A DNA stretch of 46,760 nt from positions 1-46,760 of the forward strand of contig CANSQL010000017.1 of the NCBI GenBank assembly GCA_947649125.1, written 5' to 3'. Source of the stretch: an uncultured Erysipelotrichaceae bacterium (lineage in GTDB: Bacteria > Bacillota_I > Bacilli_A > Erysipelotrichales > Erysipelotrichaceae). This document shows, piece by piece, positions 13,250 to 45,587 of this stretch (positions are counted from its first letter, which is position 1; each line of letters opens with the position of its first letter). The notes beneath the pieces are model-generated. The model made no database searches. It was given only the letters and a program-made list of their open reading frames with translations, and was not told the origin of the DNA. Position numbers and translations under genes: made by a program.

Positions 13250-13765
13250 TTATTCATAGCTTAATAAAGTGCACACATTATAATCCTTTAACAGCTCTCT
13301 GCCCTTTAAGGACAACAGCTCAATCAAAAACGCACAGCCGACGACCTCACCACCGAGCTGCTTTACGATTTGAATCGTCGCATCGACCGTACCGCCCGTA
13401 GCCAGTAAATCATCGATAATAAGCACTCTTTGACCCTTTTGAATACTGTCCGCATGTACGTGAAGCTCATTGGTACCGTATTCCAAATCATAGGTAACGC
13501 TGATTGTTTCCCTAGGCAGCTTCCCCGGCTTTCTCACCGGTACAAAGCCGATTCCAAGCTCATAGGCAACCGGACAGCCGAAGATAAAACCGCGGGATTC
13601 CGGTCCCAATATCACATCGGCTTTTACCTCACGCGCAAAATCACAAAGGCGCTTGCATGCCTCTTGAAATGCCGCCTCATTTGCCATTAACGGCGTAATA
13701 TCTCGAAACAGAATTCCTTCCTGCGGGAAATTCGGTATTGTCGCAATATAATCCTTTAAATTCAT
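13250..13765 (-). CDS. apt: Adenine phosphoribosyltransferase
   Basis: Apt salvages adenine to AMP using PRPP. The 171-residue sequence starts [27 protein letters not shown] and carries the PRPP-binding loop [16 protein letters not shown] plus [10 protein letters not shown], diagnostic of the family. A strong AAGGAGG lies nine bases before the ATG. The apt-relA neighbourhood is conserved in Firmicutes and links purine salvage with (p)ppGpp metabolism. Normal length, no oddities. Confidence 0.97.
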
Positions 13766-13795
13766 AGTTAAAAAAGCCTCCTTAAGAATAGTATT

Positions 13796-13804
13796 ATTAT
13801 AGCA
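13796..13804 (-). promoter_or_regulatory. Extended -10 promoter of apt-relA
   Basis: On the minus strand TGCTATAAT forms an extended -10 30 bp upstream of apt; the -35 (ATGCAA at 17 bp) is weak. Confidence 0.55.
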
Positions 13805-13951
13805 AATCCTTATTTAAATTGCATTATCAAACGCATCATCTGTTGAAATAAATTGCTTCATTTCATGAAAACAGTGTAAAATTATGCTTTGTTGCCTTTA
13901 TCATCATACATTTGTTTTCAATCACGAATCATACTTACGCAATCTCATACC

Positions 13952-13978
13952 ACAAAAAAAGAGCTGCTCGCTCTTTTA
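13952..13978 (-). terminator. Terminator of efp
   Basis: On the minus strand AAAGAGC and GCTCTTT pair around a short loop and a T-run follows. The hairpin overlaps the efp stop codon. Confidence 0.8.
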
Positions 13979-14539
13979 ATCCTTCGCTCTGCCGGAATAT
14001 TTTCCGTCTGCTGTATTCACGACAATCATTTCATCCTGTTCAATAAACAAAGGAACCTTGATTTCCAAACCGCTTTCCAGCTTTGCGTTTTTAGATGCAC
14101 TTGTTGCGGTATCACCCTTTACTGCCGGTTCACATTCAATTACCTGCAGAGTTGCCTTATCCGGTAAGATAACACCCAAGATTTCACCCTCAAACATAGA
14201 AATCGTCACATCATCATTCGGTTTGATGAAATTCATTTCCCATGTCAAGCGTTCCTTAGGAATCTCAATTTGTTCATACGTTTCATTATCCATAAATACC
14301 AAAGAATCCTCGGTATCATATAAATACTGCATTACTTTCTTATCGATACGAGCCGGCTGAATCTTATCGCCGCCGCCCCATGAAAGCTCTACATTTGAAC
14401 CTGTACGCAAATTACGCACCTTTGCCTTTACGACCATCGCAGAGCGTGCGGTTTTATTCTGGCTTTGTTCCAATACGACAAAGATGTTGCCGTCCTGTTG
14501 AATCGTCATTCCCGGTTTTAAATCATTTGAAGATATCAT
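13976..14539 (-). CDS. efp: Elongation factor P with an Arg-tip loop
   Basis: EF-P enters the ribosomal E site and relieves stalling at polyproline. The 187-residue protein starts MISSNDLKPGMTIQQDGNIF and has all three beta-barrel domains, with the signature IEIPKERLTWEMNFIKPNDDV and the C-terminal GLEIKVPLFIEQDEMI. The domain I tip loop reads QNKTARSAMV instead of KPGKGQAF. Aligning the following strand puts Arg32 where Lys34 (E. coli) or Lys32 (Bacillus) is modified, and no PG is present. I use the ATG preceded by AAAGGTG; a GTG three codons upstream is less likely. It has its own promoter but follows recJ on the same strand. Confidence 0.95.
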   Translation of the reverse strand: MISSNDLKPGMTIQQDGNIFVVLEQSQNKTARSAMVVKAKVRNLRTGSNVELSWGGGDKIQPARIDKKVMQYLYDTEDSLVFMDNETYEQIEIPKERLTWEMNFIKPNDDVTISMFEGEILGVILPDKATLQVIECEPAVKGDTATSASKNAKLESGLEIKVPLFIEQDEMIVVNTADGKYSGRAKD

Positions 14540-14573
14540 TATAATCACCTTTCTTTACCTTATTATCGCTATT

Positions 14574-14602
14574 ATTTTAATTCATTTTACGCTATCCGTC
14601 AA
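14574..14602 (-). promoter_or_regulatory. Promoter of efp
   Basis: On the minus strand TTGACG (14597-14602), a 17-bp spacer and TAAAAT (14574-14579) lie just after the recJ stop. Confidence 0.65.
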
Positions 14603-14637
14603 TTTATTTATTAGGAATCTGACGGAATTGTTTGAAA

Positions 14638-16287
14638 TTAAATAAGTGAAACGCTTTCTGTCTCAATATCGATATTCGTATTCGGGGAAGCAATTTCATC
14701 TACGATAATATTCACCTTTTTTATATTACGAAATTCATTTACGGAAAGTGAGCCTAAAAAAGACAGTCTTGTTTCGTTTTGATATTTTGCATAGACATCC
14801 TTCGCATTAAAATAAAGTGCATCGATATTTTCAAGACTTTCCCATTTTACATGCTTCCCGTTTGTTAAAGATTTCATTTCCTTTACACTGTAATTTTCAA
14901 TCAAAAACAGCGGTTTACTGAATTGTTCGCCGAACGGGGCAAGTGCTTCAAGCTCATGCACTGCCGCAAGCTCACATTCCTCGATCAGGCACGGAATTGC
15001 TTCCTGTATGATTTCATCGGTAACGGATACAGTTTTCATTTTCTTTTGTACATATTCATAAAAGGCAGGATAATCCTTTTGATGAAGGCTGATGCCTGCT
15101 GCGGCGGCGTGTCCGCCGTACGCAATCAGGGAGATCGGACAATCGCTGAAAAAGCTGCGCAAGTCGATCATATGATTGCTGCGGATACTGCCCTTCATTT
15201 CCTCACCTGCTTGGGAAAATACCATTGCCGGCTTATGATACTCCTCACAAAGCTTTGCAGCAATAATTCCTAACAATCCTTCATGAAAATCCTCATGCTG
15301 CAGCATTAAAAAGGCATCGTTGGGATTGACAAGCGTGCGGGCAAATTCAGTCATTTTGCCGCTCATGGTACGGCGCTTTTGATTCAATGCATCGATCTGC
15401 TGCGCAAACAACAGAATATCGGCTTTCCTGTTCATCAATAAAAATTTAACGGTATTATTCGCATTTGCTAAATCCGCCAAACGACCGGTTGCATTCAGCC
15501 TCGGTACGACCTGAAAGGCAATCGTGCGCTCATCCCATTTATTGTCACTAGACAGTGCCTGAATCGGCTGGCAGATGCCCGCTTTTAAATAAGCAATGCC
15601 CTGCTTGACAATTTTTCTTGTTTCCTTCCACAGCGGCATGACATCACCGATTGCGGCAACAGCCGCCAATACGATATGTTCCTTGATTTCCCCCAACAAA
15701 GCGCGTGATATCATCAGTGCGATACCGGCACCGCATAAATTATCAAACTGCTCGCCCATCGTATGAGAATGTAATAAATGCGTACAAGGAACCGGTTGAT
15801 CCATCGCATGATGATCAGTTACGATCGTATCGATTCCAAGCTTTGCGCACTGATTGAGTGCTTCAAAGGCCTTTACCCCGTTATCGACCGTAATCAACAG
15901 TGAATATTCCTTTTGCTTCGCCAAATCCACCGTATTTCGATGCAGACCGTACCCTTCCTTAAAGCGATTGGGAATATAAAAGCCGCACGTGATTCCGTAA
16001 CGACTCAGCGCATCATATAAAATCGCTGTTGCGCAAATACCGTCCGCATCATAATCACCGCATATCAAAACCTTTTCCTTGGCTTCTCTTGCCTGCGTGA
16101 TCCGCTGTATTACTTCGCTCATTCCCTGTGCACAGAAAGGATCGATCATTTCACTATTGCTTAATAATTCCGTTATTTGCGCTTGGTTCAATGCTTTCGC
16201 AACACATACCTTTGCCGCCAAATCACTTAACCCGAATGTTTCTTTAATTGCTTCATAGCCTGAAACAGATAATGCTTTAATTTTCAT
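14638..16287 (-). CDS. recJ: Single-stranded-DNA-specific exonuclease RecJ
   Basis: RecJ degrades single-stranded DNA 5' to 3' in recombination and repair. The DHH catalytic motifs are present: CGDYDADGICA, ITVDNGV, VTDHHAMDQP and, in the DHHA1 domain, AYGGHAAAAGISL. An OB-like C-terminal region follows. At 549 residues it is near the E. coli size and lacks the long C-terminal extension of Bacillus RecJ. AGGAG precedes the ATG. Its place between apt/relA and secDF matches the Bacillus order, with efp and an ECF operon inserted. Confidence 0.95.
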   Translation of the reverse strand: MKIKALSVSGYEAIKETFGLSDLAAKVCVAKALNQAQITELLSNSEMIDPFCAQGMSEVIQRITQAREAKEKVLICGDYDADGICATAILYDALSRYGITCGFYIPNRFKEGYGLHRNTVDLAKQKEYSLLITVDNGVKAFEALNQCAKLGIDTIVTDHHAMDQPVPCTHLLHSHTMGEQFDNLCGAGIALMISRALLGEIKEHIVLAAVAAIGDVMPLWKETRKIVKQGIAYLKAGICQPIQALSSDNKWDERTIAFQVVPRLNATGRLADLANANNTVKFLLMNRKADILLFAQQIDALNQKRRTMSGKMTEFARTLVNPNDAFLMLQHEDFHEGLLGIIAAKLCEEYHKPAMVFSQAGEEMKGSIRSNHMIDLRSFFSDCPISLIAYGGHAAAAGISLHQKDYPAFYEYVQKKMKTVSVTDEIIQEAIPCLIEECELAAVHELEALAPFGEQFSKPLFLIENYSVKEMKSLTNGKHVKWESLENIDALYFNAKDVYAKYQNETRLSFLGSLSVNEFRNIKKVNIIVDEIASPNTNIDIETESVSLI

Positions 16288-26452: not shown

Positions 26453-29400
26453 CTATTCTTTTCTTATTACTCCGTCTGATTTTCTTATCATAAACGCAAT
26501 CATCATTCCTATCATTAGGAAGGAGAAGCCGTTAATATCAATGATCGGAGACGTTGTTGCCGTATCTACAATCGGTGCATCACTCGATACAATTGCATAA
26601 TAGGAATTGTGGTTCGTCGTAAATGTGATATAACCGTTTTGTACTTTAGAAGGAACCATAGTAACCGTTCCGTTATCGGCAATATAAGCAATTCCCAAAT
26701 AACGCTTAGCCGCTAAATCGTCATCTAATTTAATCTTAACTGAGTAATTACCCTTAGGTGTATAAGTTGCACCGTTACGAAGCATATAAATATCGAAGAT
26801 TTTTTCAAATGTATACTTTGCTACTACTTCCTTATTCACGATAGAGGCGATTGTATTTTCCTTTGCGTCCGATGGTAAATCTTCGATAATCAATTCAATA
26901 TCATCAGGGAATTTTCCGATGATACTGACTTTGTTATCTGCGCTGTTAAGCTGATTTACATAACCCGGCCGAAGCGGTTTGTTCGGTCCGATCGGATTAC
27001 TTGGTTTGTTTGGATTATTCGGCTTATCAGGTTTATTTGGGGTATCCGGTTTGTCAGGATTGTCCGGAGTATCCGGTTTATCAGAATCATCAGGTTTTCC
27101 CGGTTTATCAGGATTATCAGGATTGTCCGGTTGATCAGGTTTATCCGGATTATCCGGTTGGTTAGGGTTGTCCGGATCATTACCGTCATCCTTTTCTTGC
27201 AGGTCGGCAAGCGCCTTATTCACAGCATCTGCCGCTTGATCCACTTCAGCCTGTGTAGCTTTTTCGTTTGCTGCTACAACATTTGCATCAGCCAACACAT
27301 GATTCAAATTCTCCAGACTCTCATCTGTATATTTTGAAGAATCGATGTCAGCAGCATCTTTAATCGCTTTATTTAATGCAGTGAAGTCAGCTTTCACTGT
27401 TACATTGATTTGTGCAGTTGCGTTATTATCTGCGCTTGTAACAGTAATGATTGTTGAACCTGATTTTTTCGCTGTAACAGTACCGTTTACTACTTCAACA
27501 ATATCTGTGTCACCGCTTTCCCAAACTAATTCTTTATTAGTCGCATCTTCCGGATTGATTGTTACTTCAATCTCTTTGCTTTCATCTTTTTCTAAAATAA
27601 TTTCATCATCTGCGAATTCAATGCTGTCTACTAATACTTCATCAGGTGCCGACAATTCTTCATATTTCTTGCTTATTGTATAAAGCTGATCTTTGAAGTC
27701 GGAAACGTCTACTAATATTTGCTGTCTGCCTGCTTCGGTAATCCAGCGAGCAGGTTTTCCGCCGGCATATGCCCATCCCGGCTGATTGTTCACCAAGTCA
27801 AAAGCATAATTAGATTTTACAGTCGAGAATAATTGTTCAATATCTTGAGCTAATTCAGGATATGCTTCCTGCATGCGATATAATTTATTAATATCGCGGA
27901 TTCCTTCACCATATTTTTCACTTCTGATGGAAGCTTTTGTCACCTTTTTTTCAGCATCCTTCGGTGATGGATACACCATGAAACAATCGCCCGGCTGGAA
28001 GGAATAATGCGTTGTATCTACTAACGGATCTTCTACCCAAGCATCATAAGCCCAATCTAAGAATCCGTCTACACCTAAAGAACCTGAGAACATCATTGTC
28101 CAGTAACTCTCTGCCGGCAGAGAACGTAAGAATGAATTCGGGAATACATCTGTTCCGGTATAGAAAGTAGTGCTTAAACCTTTTTCTTTACGATCTGCCA
28201 AGAACGGTTTGAAGTCCGCAATATTGTTTCTTAATAAATTTAAGTTATAAGAAAGATCTTCCATTCTGGGCGGTACACCATCACCATTGAAAATATGGTT
28301 ATACGCGCCTTTTTTCTTGAATGACTTACCGTCTTTATTCTTCACTTCATCAATAAGATCAAAAACATTTTTCATCATCGCTCTTTCATCAAAGCCGATG
28401 GAAACCTTATCAAACCAATCCTTTGCATCAAGATGTGCTGTGAAGTCAATTAAGAAAGGTCTCCAATAAGAAGCATAATTGGTTTTATTGGAAATGCTGA
28501 CAGTATCTTTTTTCACTGTGCCTGAAGCTTCATCATAATAAATGATTCGATCGTTCCATGGAATCATACTGTATAAAACGATGTCATCGCCGATACCGAT
28601 TGATTCAGCTACTTCCACAAATTTATCGAAGTAATCATAATCAAATGACCATGTGCCATCAGCCTTTTTCGTCCATTTAATTAATGAAGGGCAACGAATA
28701 TCATCACCGTTTGCAGGATCGATTTCACCGTAAGTCTGTCCGCCCCATGCTTCTTCTACTAATGATGCGGTTAAGGTTACACCGCCATATTCCTTATATT
28801 GTAATAAGTGCGTTCTCAAAATATCGATATGTTCCGGAGAGAACGGTTCAACCTCATAATACTCTGCTGAACTGAAAGGATATGTCCAATAATTAGGTCT
28901 GAAGGTGTAATCTTCAGTATCATCAAATGTAAGATCAATAACCTCAAACGTATAATCGATTGTCTTACCCTCTGTCAATCCGTCAGCCGTAACAGTAATC
29001 TGTCCCGTATAAGTTCCCGGCTGTGTATCTTTACCGGCCTTGAAATCAAGCCATACCAACTGAACTCTGTCTTTACCTAATTGCGCTAAAGGCTCGCTTG
29101 TATCAATAATATCAAAATAGTATTCTTTAGGACCTGTTGGCATGATCGCATTCGGATTAATGGAATACCAGCCTGCATTACCGATAAAGCCCAGCGCTTC
29201 TGTGATAAAGGTAGCTTGTATTGCATCAGAATCAAGAACCGTACCTTTTTCATTTTCAAATTGGCCGATTTCGACTCTGACATTATTTAAATCTTCTGAT
29301 CCACTAAGAATCGCAATTTCCGAAATCGCCTTGTCGTTTTTCCAGCTCCATAAAGTATCCGTTGTCTCATTTACTTTCAGTAACGAATCATAAGCTTTTT

Positions 29401-30235
29401 GTTGAAACTGATCATTGGAATCTACAACAGTAACATGTAATTTATCTTTTTCCTTTACGGTAATTGTCATACTGTTATAGATACCTAGGCTTTGACAGTC
29501 ACCGCTGACCATAGCCGTGCCGCTTCCCTTTGCAGTTACCTTACCTGTCTCATCTACAGTCAAAATTGATTCATCCTCTGTCGCAAACACAAAATCTTCA
29601 GGTAAAGCTGCCCCCACAGGTTCAGTATCATATTCGATCTGATATTCTTGACCTACATAAATCTCTGCGCTTCTGTTTTTAAATGTTACATTAGAAGCTG
29701 TTGCTTTTGGTTTAAAAATATCTGCTCTGGTTACTTGGATATTAGCACCGCTGGCATTGGCGTTCTTTGTACCGGTTGCTTTACATTTCAATGTATGCTC
29801 TTTATTCTCCAAGTTCTTATACTCAACTAGTTTTAAAGCGGACGCCGGTCTGCTCGCAGCATAAGTATCCACTGTTTTAACATCTCCACCGTCAATAGAA
29901 AATTCTATGATGGCATGAGAAGGTGCTTTAAAGCCAAACACTTCAATTCCTGTTCCCTCGAATTTAATCGTATAATATACATCATTATTAGCCGGCTGAG
30001 AGGTATCTACAGTTGTAAAATACTCGTTTGCCGCTACCCCGGCTTTCCATTTTGTACTGGGGTAGTAATAAAATTTATTATTCTCATTTTCACCACCTGC
30101 ATCAAGTTTTGCATTAATTGATATTATATCTTCGGTGCCGCTTGCTGCAATAGTAATTCCGCTTGTAACCAATGAGGTAAGCGCCAATGCAGCAGCGAAT
30201 AAAGATAAACAAAGTTTTTTCAGTTTATTTTTCAT
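26453..30235 (-). CDS. Large surface glycoside hydrolase (GH123/DUF4091-like) with Big2 and FIVAR domains
   Basis: This 1260-residue protein starts with a signal peptide (KLCLSLFAAALALTSLVTSGITIAA). The domain order is a jelly-roll-like module (36-175), a Big2-like domain (175-262) and a beta domain (about 270-435). A catalytic-looking region similar to GH123/DUF4091 (445-860) has an adjacent Asp616-Glu617 in SIGFDERAMM. GH123 enzymes use a neighbouring Asp-Glu pair. A second Big2 domain (866-948), a FIVAR module (949-1015), a D-N-P-K linker (1017-1090), a terminal domain and one C-terminal helix with a short basic tail complete it. No LPxTG is seen. The likely role is removing N-acetylgalactosamine from host glycans. 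I start at the ATG after AAGGGAAG; the open frame extends 41 codons upstream without signal-peptide logic. Confidence 0.85.
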   Translation of the reverse strand: MKNKLKKLCLSLFAAALALTSLVTSGITIAASGTEDIISINAKLDAGGENENNKFYYYPSTKWKAGVAANEYFTTVDTSQPANNDVYYTIKFEGTGIEVFGFKAPSHAIIEFSIDGGDVKTVDTYAASRPASALKLVEYKNLENKEHTLKCKATGTKNANASGANIQVTRADIFKPKATASNVTFKNRSAEIYVGQEYQIEYDTEPVGAALPEDFVFATEDESILTVDETGKVTAKGSGTAMVSGDCQSLGIYNSMTITVKEKDKLHVTVVDSNDQFQQKAYDSLLKVNETTDTLWSWKNDKAISEIAILSGSEDLNNVRVEIGQFENEKGTVLDSDAIQATFITEALGFIGNAGWYSINPNAIMPTGPKEYYFDIIDTSEPLAQLGKDRVQLVWLDFKAGKDTQPGTYTGQITVTADGLTEGKTIDYTFEVIDLTFDDTEDYTFRPNYWTYPFSSAEYYEVEPFSPEHIDILRTHLLQYKEYGGVTLTASLVEEAWGGQTYGEIDPANGDDIRCPSLIKWTKKADGTWSFDYDYFDKFVEVAESIGIGDDIVLYSMIPWNDRIIYYDEASGTVKKDTVSISNKTNYASYWRPFLIDFTAHLDAKDWFDKVSIGFDERAMMKNVFDLIDEVKNKDGKSFKKKGAYNHIFNGDGVPPRMEDLSYNLNLLRNNIADFKPFLADRKEKGLSTTFYTGTDVFPNSFLRSLPAESYWTMMFSGSLGVDGFLDWAYDAWVEDPLVDTTHYSFQPGDCFMVYPSPKDAEKKVTKASIRSEKYGEGIRDINKLYRMQEAYPELAQDIEQLFSTVKSNYAFDLVNNQPGWAYAGGKPARWITEAGRQQILVDVSDFKDQLYTISKKYEELSAPDEVLVDSIEFADDEIILEKDESKEIEVTINPEDATNKELVWESGDTDIVEVVNGTVTAKKSGSTIITVTSADNNATAQINVTVKADFTALNKAIKDAADIDSSKYTDESLENLNHVLADANVVAANEKATQAEVDQAADAVNKALADLQEKDDGNDPDNPNQPDNPDKPDQPDNPDNPDKPGKPDDSDKPDTPDNPDKPDTPNKPDKPNNPNKPSNPIGPNKPLRPGYVNQLNSADNKVSIIGKFPDDIELIIEDLPSDAKENTIASIVNKEVVAKYTFEKIFDIYMLRNGATYTPKGNYSVKIKLDDDLAAKRYLGIAYIADNGTVTMVPSKVQNGYITFTTNHNSYYAIVSSDAPIVDTATTSPIIDINGFSFLMIGMMIAFMIRKSDGVIRKE
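26990..27190 (-). repeat. Low-complexity D-N-P-K-P linker repeat inside the surface protein
   Basis: The coding strand repeats short units encoding PDNPDKPDQPDNPD and variants, residues 1017-1090 of the glycosidase. Such stretches span the cell wall and often vary in copy number between strains. Confidence 0.85.
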
Positions 30236-30520
30236 ATGCTCTTCCCTTTCCTGTTTTTTGAAATATCCGATGATATTTCTTACATTATCTTGTGATTGTA
30301 CATTCTTGCTGAACTGCTTGATATTTACTTCAAACCATAACATCCATACCCCTTTCATACACTCTGATCAATATAACAAGTCGAATATATCAAATCGTAT
30401 ACTTTTGTAGACAGGATTTCAAATGGGAAATTCCTGCTTTTTTTATGCATAAAACATACTTTTTTAACTCTGTATTGTTTTGTTCCCAAAAGTATACGTT
30501 TTTATACATTAAAAGTATAC

Positions 30521-44073: not shown

Positions 44074-44094
44074 AAAGCTTCGCAAGGAAGCTTT
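44074..44094. terminator. Left copy of the terminator hairpin (IS target duplication)
   Basis: Twenty-one bases consisting of AAAGCTTC, a GCAAG loop and GAAGCTTT. It is identical, in direct orientation, to 45782-45802. On the plus strand its T-run is cut short by the IS (TTTCAGA). On the minus strand TTTTTG follows, so it can terminate the transposase mRNA. Confidence 0.85.
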
Positions 44095-45587
44095 CAGATT
44101 GTTGACAAAGTGGTACTCCAAAAAGAGTATCGCTTTTCATTTGCTTCATAAATTTTAAAAACGCTGAAAATTATTCGTTTTATAATGACTTTAGAAGAAG
44201 TTTTCCAACTCCATCTTGCCATTCTTTTCAGATTATGACACGCAAAAATCATCAGCGATTGATGCTGATTTTTTTGTAATCCTTTCAACCTTGTATATCT
44301 CAAATTGTGATGCTCCTTACAGTCTCCAAATACACGTTCTATACTCTCTTTACGCAGTGGATATAATTCTTTCCATTCGGGTGTATGTCGTATCTCTTCC
44401 ATGACTTCTTCTCGATATTCTTCCCATACATGACGAGTAACTACTTTTTGATGATTCTTCGATTGGGTACATTTATTTAAAAAAGGACATTTCTTACAGT
44501 CTTCCGGATTTGATTTATACTCTTTATATCCTAATTTGTTCGTATTACTGTATTCCAGTATTTTGATGTTGGGACATATATAACAGTCGTATCCTTCATC
44601 GTAAACATATTCATATTTTTTGAAGTTTCCTTTCTTTGTCATTGGTCTTTTATATGGCGCATACATTTTTTGTTTATGCTCCAATATCGTCTTACATATT
44701 GCCGGGGTTATATATCCCGCATCTAAACATATGTTTTTGATCTGATCTTTGTATTTATCACTTAAGATTTGGTATGCCGGAAAGAATGATACACTGTCAT
44801 GCACATTGCCGGGTACGCATAGACTTAATATCACAAAGCCGTTCTTATCACAGAATGTCTGGTGTGAATAGGCAAAACATTTTTCCTTTTCCCCTTTATG
44901 AAAACAGCCACTTTCCGGATCTGTTTTGCTTACTTTAATATGCTTTGTTTCTACGTCTTTTTTCAGTTTGCCGGTTTCTTCATCATAATTCAGTTCTTCT
45001 TTTTCATTTGTTTTTATTGGCTTTTTCCCATGTTTTTCACGGTCTTTATTAATCTCATCCAAAAGTTCATCTTCATATACTTTCTTTACGATGGCAACTT
45101 CTTCATCTGTATGTTTGTTTTTATTTGCGTTTGCTTTTTGGTGCGTGGAATCTCCGTACACTGTTTCCATATCCACAAATCCATAGGTAATCGCTTGTTT
45201 TAATATCTGATCAAATATCTGTTCAAATACTTGGCTGTCTCCATATCTTCTGATATAGTTTTGACTCCATGTAGAATAGTTAGGTACCTGTTCATCCATT
45301 GAGATTCCCAGAAACCAGCGATATGCCAGATTTACCTGTATTTCTTTACAGGTTCTTCTCATAGAGCCTATACCAAACACGATATTTATAAAAATCATTT
45401 TGAAAAGTACCACAGGATCAATACTTGGTCTACCAAAATCACTGTATAGATGTTCAACTGATGGATAGATAAAACTCCAGTCTATACAGGATTCCAGTTT
45501 TCTCACTTCATGATCTTGTGGTACCAATCCTTCTATTGTATTCAATATGATATTATCATTTTTACTATTTCTTTTTGTCATTGCCAT
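44094..45587 (-). CDS. IS1182-type transposase
   Basis: This 497-residue protein has a DUF772-like N-terminal domain (VEHLYSDFGRPSIDPVVLFKMIFINIVFGIGSMRRTCKEI) and a DDE domain with VYGDSTHQKANANKNKH and LDAGYITPAICKTI. A C-terminal Glu region RKESIERVFGDCKEHHNLRYTRLKGL and a zinc-like CKKCPFLNKC cluster complete it, as is usual in the IS1182 group. It appears intact. The ATG (MAMTKRN) follows GGGAG, with extended -10 TGTTATAAT. The stop TGA uses bases 44094-44096: TG from the IS end and A from the flank if the IS begins at 44095. Confidence 0.92.
   Translation of the reverse strand: MAMTKRNSKNDNIILNTIEGLVPQDHEVRKLESCIDWSFIYPSVEHLYSDFGRPSIDPVVLFKMIFINIVFGIGSMRRTCKEIQVNLAYRWFLGISMDEQVPNYSTWSQNYIRRYGDSQVFEQIFDQILKQAITYGFVDMETVYGDSTHQKANANKNKHTDEEVAIVKKVYEDELLDEINKDREKHGKKPIKTNEKEELNYDEETGKLKKDVETKHIKVSKTDPESGCFHKGEKEKCFAYSHQTFCDKNGFVILSLCVPGNVHDSVSFFPAYQILSDKYKDQIKNICLDAGYITPAICKTILEHKQKMYAPYKRPMTKKGNFKKYEYVYDEGYDCYICPNIKILEYSNTNKLGYKEYKSNPEDCKKCPFLNKCTQSKNHQKVVTRHVWEEYREEVMEEIRHTPEWKELYPLRKESIERVFGDCKEHHNLRYTRLKGLQKNQHQSLMIFACHNLKRMARWSWKTSSKVIIKRIIFSVFKIYEANEKRYSFWSTTLSTI

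What the first reader, a model, noticed from the sequence alone, without database searches (positions are those of the whole stretch)
13976..14539. EF-P with Arg at the tip and no PGKG loop
The loop is QNKTARSAMV. By alignment Arg32 replaces the lysine that other Firmicutes decorate with aminopentanol. Arg-tip EF-Ps of proteobacteria need the rhamnosyltransferase EarP. Here no modification gene is near, so the factor may work unmodified or carry an unknown modification, on Arg32 or on Lys29.
Basis: partly seen in the sequence, partly recalled or inferred. Interest (0 to 1): 0.6.

Follow-up and report, generated by a model that had tools for sequence, protein, structure and literature searches.

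The report
EF-P with a probably unmodified arginine tip
This bacterium's only copy of the proline-helper translation factor EF-P carries an arginine where most bacteria carry a chemically decorated lysine, and it belongs to a wide family of relatives (including Ureaplasma) whose tip is arginine, methionine or glutamine, so this branch probably manages without any decoration.

Summary
The gene is on the minus strand, 13976-14539. Its seven-residue loop is K29-T-A-R32-S-A-M35, with Arg32 at the tip by alignment and by model. The genome has one EF-P, no PGKG copy, no EarP, only LysRS in place of EpmA, and no SDR above the YmfI cut-off.

The protein is not an isolated oddity. It belongs to an order-wide EF-P lineage with an NKTA loop and a tip of Arg, Met or Gln (loop pattern found in 141 of 196 sampled genomes; Met-tipped in Ureaplasma and Malacoplasma). 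In 84 of the 141 no PGKG EF-P was found; 57 also carry one, usually beside an SDR gene. EarP occurs in one genome, on a contig that looks like contamination.

In 164 distinct loops, Arg32 never comes with a basic residue at 33/34, while Met32 or Gln32 always does. The residue before the tip is Ala, which nearly abolishes EarP action in Pseudomonas and also precedes the unmodified Arg of EfpL.

Best reading: an EF-P that works without modification. Arg tips without EarP and Met/Gln tips were already known; the lineage-wide pattern and the shifting arginine look new. No mass spectrum exists here to prove it.

The parts
13976..14539 (-). efp, translation elongation factor P, 187 aa, the only EF-P gene of the genome; NKTA lineage, Arg tip
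14435..14455 (-). codons of the beta3-beta4 loop K29-T30-A31-R32-S33-A34-M35
   Evidence: translation; strands 18-28 and 36-43 in the model
14444..14446 (-). codon of Arg32 (CGC), the loop tip, in place of the modified Lys of PGKG EF-Ps
   Evidence: alignments; matched DNA
14638..16287 (-). recJ, upstream neighbour (context only, not a modification gene)
13250..13765 (-). apt, downstream neighbour (context only, not a modification gene)

Best explanation
This is a working EF-P that most likely acts without post-translational modification. Shown: it has the full EF-P fold and domains, keeps the C-terminal Tyr and Arg that touch the ribosome and tRNA, is the only EF-P of the cell, and has Arg32 at the apex of a canonical seven-residue loop. 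Also shown: its lineage swaps Arg, Met and Gln at the tip, and loops with Met or Gln always carry a basic residue (usually Arg33) next to it. [quoted passage not shown]
For: One EF-P and no EarP/EpmA/YmfI in the genome. In the order (196 genomes): EarP in one genome only, on a contig with a proteobacterial-type EF-P and a porin-like ORF, so probably contamination; EpmA hits are LysRS-sized and none passes the cut-off; no SDR passes the YmfI cut-off and the best ones inspected are FabG in fatty-acid operons. Close relatives have Met or Gln tips, 50 of those 83 genomes with no PGKG copy found. Arg is kept through synonymous codon changes CGT/AGA/CGC/CGA. Arg32 pairs with no basic residue at 33/34 in 44/44 loops; Met/Gln32 pairs with one in 120/120. 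Ala31: G31A in P. putida EF-P cuts rhamnosylation below 1% (PMC6544042). EfpL has PTAR and its Arg is unmodified by mass spectrometry (PMC11611912). Ribosome-contact Tyr181 and Arg184 are invariant in 52 sequences, matching E. coli Tyr183 and Arg186 (PMC11611912).
Against: Everything about modification is by absence of known enzymes; more than half of bacteria have no known EF-P enzyme (PMC6544042), so an unknown one is possible. In the E. coli frame an unmodified Arg tip gives about 20% activity and Met or Gln none (PMC6544042), and unmodified N. meningitidis EF-P works only weakly (PMC4739656). The Arg/basic-33 pattern rests on only about three changes on the tree, one well supported, so it is not statistically independent evidence.
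Confidence: 0.68

Rival explanations
1. Arg32 carries an unknown modification made by an enzyme unrelated to EarP.
For: Many bacteria lack all known EF-P enzymes (PMC6544042). Arg is strictly kept in two subclades (30/30 second-family genomes with the pattern, 28 first-family genomes).
Against: Met- and Gln-tipped members of the same lineage live in the same families, some of them as the only EF-P found, so an Arg-specific enzyme would have to be gained or lost in step. No gene is linked to efp across the Arg-tip members; efp even moved within the genus. Ala31 disfavours at least EarP-like recognition.
Confidence: 0.17
2. The factor is weakened or drifting, and other factors (ABCF ATPases such as YfmR, or low polyproline load) carry the work.
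For: B. subtilis EF-P shares its task with YfmR and YkpA (title and abstract of PMC11381351). Tip residues vary within the lineage. 57 genomes carry an extra PGKG copy, as if the native one were not always enough.
Against: The window organism and its five congeners with efp keep one copy at 95-100% identity. The Arg tip is kept through synonymous changes and the ribosome-contact residues are invariant. Window proteins such as RuvB, AspS and TruB still contain PP motifs.
Confidence: 0.1
3. Lys29 carries the functional modification in place of the tip.
For: Lys29 is invariant in the lineage.
Against: It is equally invariant in PGKG copies with a tip lysine and corresponds to the first Lys of KPGKG. 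The model places it at the base of the loop. P. putida tolerates substitutions at K29 (PMC6544042).
Confidence: 0.03

Closest known systems
EarP-type EF-P (P. aeruginosa 3OYY, N. meningitidis)
   Same: Arg at the loop tip, seven-residue loop, no Pro two residues before the tip
   Different: Needs the rhamnosyltransferase EarP, normally next to efp; Gly before the tip (SGR/GGR) where this has Ala; separate branch of the tree; no EarP here
EfpL / YeiP (E. coli 8S8U)
   Same: TAR at the tip; its Arg is unmodified by mass spectrometry (PMC11611912)
   Different: Nine-residue loop, Pro three residues before the Arg, a paralog that accompanies a lysine EF-P; this one has a seven-residue loop, is the only EF-P, scores 107.8 bits against the YeiP cut-off of 264 and lies far away in the tree
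Arg-tip EF-P without EarP: Thermus thermophilus (1UEB, KLGRG loop), Borrelia burgdorferi
   Same: Arg tip. For B. burgdorferi the lack of EarP is stated in PMC4739656; for Thermus I rely on general knowledge and on the named control genome Thermus composti, which gave no EarP match
   Different: Different loop context and different lineage (for Thermus; Borrelia not compared)
PGKG EF-P with 5-aminopentanol (B. subtilis, S. aureus)
   Same: Same fold; nearest solved structures by sequence and fold
   Different: Lys tip with Pro two before it and YmfI; none of these here
Met- or Gln-tip EF-Ps listed in PMC6544042 (0.77% and 0.6% of 1166)
   Same: Tip residues seen in this lineage's other members; none of them has Pro two before the tip
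   Different: The window protein has Arg; the paper does not describe this lineage in the parts read

Membership tests
Elongation factor P | KOW-like N domain plus two OB domains, above curated cut-offs | tested here: met
   TIGR00038 219.5 bits (cut-off 185.8); PF08207, PF01132, PF09285 all over cut-off; Foldseek to EF-P structures, TM up to 0.91
Elongation factor P | C-terminal Tyr and Arg that contact tRNA and 16S rRNA | tested here: met
   Tyr181 and Arg184 invariant in 52 sequences
Elongation factor P | relieves stalling at polyproline | not testable with these tools
   needs an assay
EarP-dependent (rhamnosylated) EF-P | Arg at the loop tip | tested here: met
EarP-dependent (rhamnosylated) EF-P | earP in the genome | tested here: not met
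   no PF10093 match up to E 10 in the own genome; 1 of 196 in the order, on a probable contaminant contig
EarP-dependent (rhamnosylated) EF-P | Gly before the tip | tested here: not met
   Ala31; G31A gives under 1% rhamnosylation in P. putida (PMC6544042)
EfpL / YeiP | loop longer than seven residues | tested here: not met
   seven residues 29-35
EfpL / YeiP | curated YeiP model | tested here: not met
   107.8 bits against a cut-off of 264
Lysine-type EF-P (EpmA or YmfI modified) | Lys at the tip with Pro two before it | tested here: not met
   Arg32 and Thr30
Lysine-type EF-P (EpmA or YmfI modified) | EpmA or YmfI in the genome | tested here: not met
   only a LysRS-sized match; best SDR 188 bits against the YmfI cut-off of 238

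The most novel reading that the evidence does not exclude
The NKTA EF-Ps form a natural modification-free class, the native EF-P of Erysipelotrichales and related Mycoplasmatota-like lineages, in which a bare arginine does the work of the decorated lysine and can sit either at the tip (position 32) or one residue on (position 33) with Met or Gln at the tip.
Probability: 0.45. Interest if true: 0.62.

Novelty: new variant of a known kind. Interest (0 to 1): 0.45.

Why it matters
EF-P is usually described as needing a chemical extension on its tip residue. A branch of bacteria that includes gut commensals and Ureaplasma, with Arg, Met or Gln at the tip and no known enzyme, would show a second route to the same task and make the open question of how an unmodified tip can work testable. 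Reporter assays with loop swaps (R32S33, M32R33, Q32R33) would test it directly.

Tried and rejected
YmfI: about 220-bit SDR matches in 72 genomes looked like YmfI candidates; the ones inspected sit in fabK-fabD-fabG-fabF-fabZ operons, so they are FabG. EarP in G177: a 354-aa EarP beside a KSGRN EF-P on a contig that also bears an outer-membrane-like ORF; treated as contamination. EpmA: 170 genomes matched, all below the cut-off, one match per genome in frames of about 500 aa, that is LysRS. A linked modification gene: no gene is constant beside Arg-tip efp; the window neighbours are recJ and apt, while relatives have com genes, an uncharacterised protein, cmk and der. Kinship to EfpL because of the shared TAR motif: rejected by loop length, model score and tree. 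Independent-contrast test of the Arg32/basic-33 pattern: too few independent changes to be significant. Paper searches for this lineage by name found nothing. Brewer and Wagner 2024 (msae180), which surveys EF-P tips, is not held, so part of the pattern may already be tabulated there.

Full report
What is there. The gene at 13976-14539 lies on the minus strand and encodes a 187-aa EF-P with an ATG start. It passes the curated EF-P model and has all three EF-P domains. The closest solved structures are EF-Ps of S. aureus, C. thermocellum and T. thermophilus. An AlphaFold2 model from 52 relatives (mean pLDDT 88.1, pTM 0.69) matches EF-P structures with TM scores up to 0.91.

The tip. The loop reads K29-T-A-R32-S-A-M35. 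It aligns without gaps to KPGKG loops and to the KSGRN loop of P. aeruginosa. The model has strands ending at 28 and starting at 36, so residue 32 is the middle of a seven-residue loop. Lys29 is the general first Lys of EF-P loops and is invariant in both PGKG and NKTA copies.

The genome. G000 (2.41 Mb, 93 contigs, 98.7% complete) has one EF-P, no EarP match up to E 10, no PGKG motif, a best SDR 50 bits below the YmfI cut-off, and a single EpmA-model match in a 500-aa frame, the size of LysRS. Absence from a draft genome is not proof, but all five other members of the genus with an efp gene also show only this one.

The lineage. In 196 genomes of the order, 185 have an EF-P N domain. A loop-pattern search found NKTA loops in 141 and PGKG loops in 81. 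By script the tips of the 141 are 73 Met, 58 Arg and 10 Gln; 57 also have a PGKG copy and 84 do not. Twenty genomes have an EF-P domain that fits neither pattern and were not read. In a wider sample of 392 genomes 108 matched. A scan of named genomes found the loop in Ureaplasma diversum, Malacoplasma, Erysipelothrix, Solobacterium, Sharpea, Allobaculum, Longicatena and others; the Mycoplasmataceae ones have Met. One Anaerolineales MAG has NKTARGG but groups outside the clade, so it is probably separate.

History. With loop columns left out, the NKTA proteins form one clade (SH-aLRT 92) apart from the PGKG copies of the same genomes, from EarP-type EF-P and from EfpL. In the second family (f2) the NKTA gene sits in a com - efp - spoIIIAH - asp23 - nusB - xseA - xseB - ispA neighbourhood, which from general knowledge resembles the ancestral Firmicutes efp locus. 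So the NKTA gene is probably the native EF-P and the PGKG gene an addition. The PGKG copy is followed by an SDR gene in 28 of 30 loci and preceded by a PnuC-like gene in 25. Because B. subtilis finishes its lysine modification with the SDR YmfI, this neighbour is a candidate enzyme for the PGKG copy only; it scores 164.6 bits, below the YmfI cut-off.

The shifting arginine. In 164 distinct loop segments, all 44 with Arg32 have no basic residue at 33 or 34, and all 120 with Met32 or Gln32 have one, Arg33 in most and Lys34 in four. Arg32 is written by four different codons (CGT, AGA, CGC, CGA), so the amino acid is being kept. The tree needs only about three Arg gains or losses, one on well-supported branches, so the pairing is suggestive and not significant on its own.

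Why unmodified is favoured. Known enzymes are missing. Met and Gln cannot take the known lysine or arginine modifications, yet such tips serve as the only EF-P type found in 50 genomes. Ala before the tip reduces rhamnosylation below 1% in P. putida and is not tolerated in E. coli EF-P (PMC6544042). [quoted passage not shown] Against this, an unmodified Arg in the E. coli frame gives only 20% activity and Met or Gln none (PMC6544042), and unmodified N. meningitidis EF-P is weak (PMC4739656). The rest of the loop differs in those proteins, so they are not a direct test.

What was known. Arg is the tip in 14.75% of 1166 EF-Ps, while 100 EarP proteins were found in that study, so many Arg tips lack EarP (my reading of the two numbers in PMC6544042). 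B. burgdorferi is named as Arg32 without EarP (PMC4739656). Met (0.77%) and Gln (0.6%) tips are listed, never with Pro two before (PMC6544042). I therefore file this as a new variant of a known kind, with moderate interest.

Movement of the gene. In two congeners efp sits at com - efp - X - cmk - der; in the window genome and at least two others it lies between recJ and apt, and the old site of the window genome has no efp. This moves no known modification gene with it.

Noticed in passing
window 13250-16287; L249 (G000:C1), L240, L248: efp has changed place within the genus: between recJ and apt in the window genome and in G049 and G079, but at com - efp - X - cmk - der in G051 and G153. The old site in the window genome is empty of efp.
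   Followed up: partly
L002-L031: The extra PGKG EF-P of many Erysipelotrichales sits in a conserved PnuC-like - efp - SDR cluster. The SDR is a candidate EF-P-modifying reductase unlike YmfI by score.
   Followed up: partly
L061:5069-5932, L240:6979-8004 and relatives: An uncharacterised protein of about 290-340 aa, with no Pfam or NCBIfam match in the member tested, lies directly downstream of NKTA efp and upstream of cmk in many genomes.
   Followed up: no
L223 (G177:C126): EarP beside a KSGRN EF-P on a contig with an outer-membrane-like ORF in an Erysipelotrichales MAG; looks like proteobacterial contamination.
   Followed up: partly
L127:4774-5328: An Anaerolineales MAG has an EF-P with the loop NKTARGG, an apparently independent Arg tip in the same motif.
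   Followed up: partly
G041 and G062: Two genomes rated 98-99% complete give no candidates at all for EF-P or for the EpmA model; this may be odd data and not loss of EF-P.
   Followed up: no
window 44094-45587: An ORF that looks like an IS1182-type transposase (by eye), with a 94% identical copy near the efp locus of G077 (L243).
   Followed up: no
window 26453-30358: Large ORF with a GH123 catalytic domain, Big_2 repeats and a Pro-Asp-rich linker, probably a surface glycosidase.
   Followed up: no
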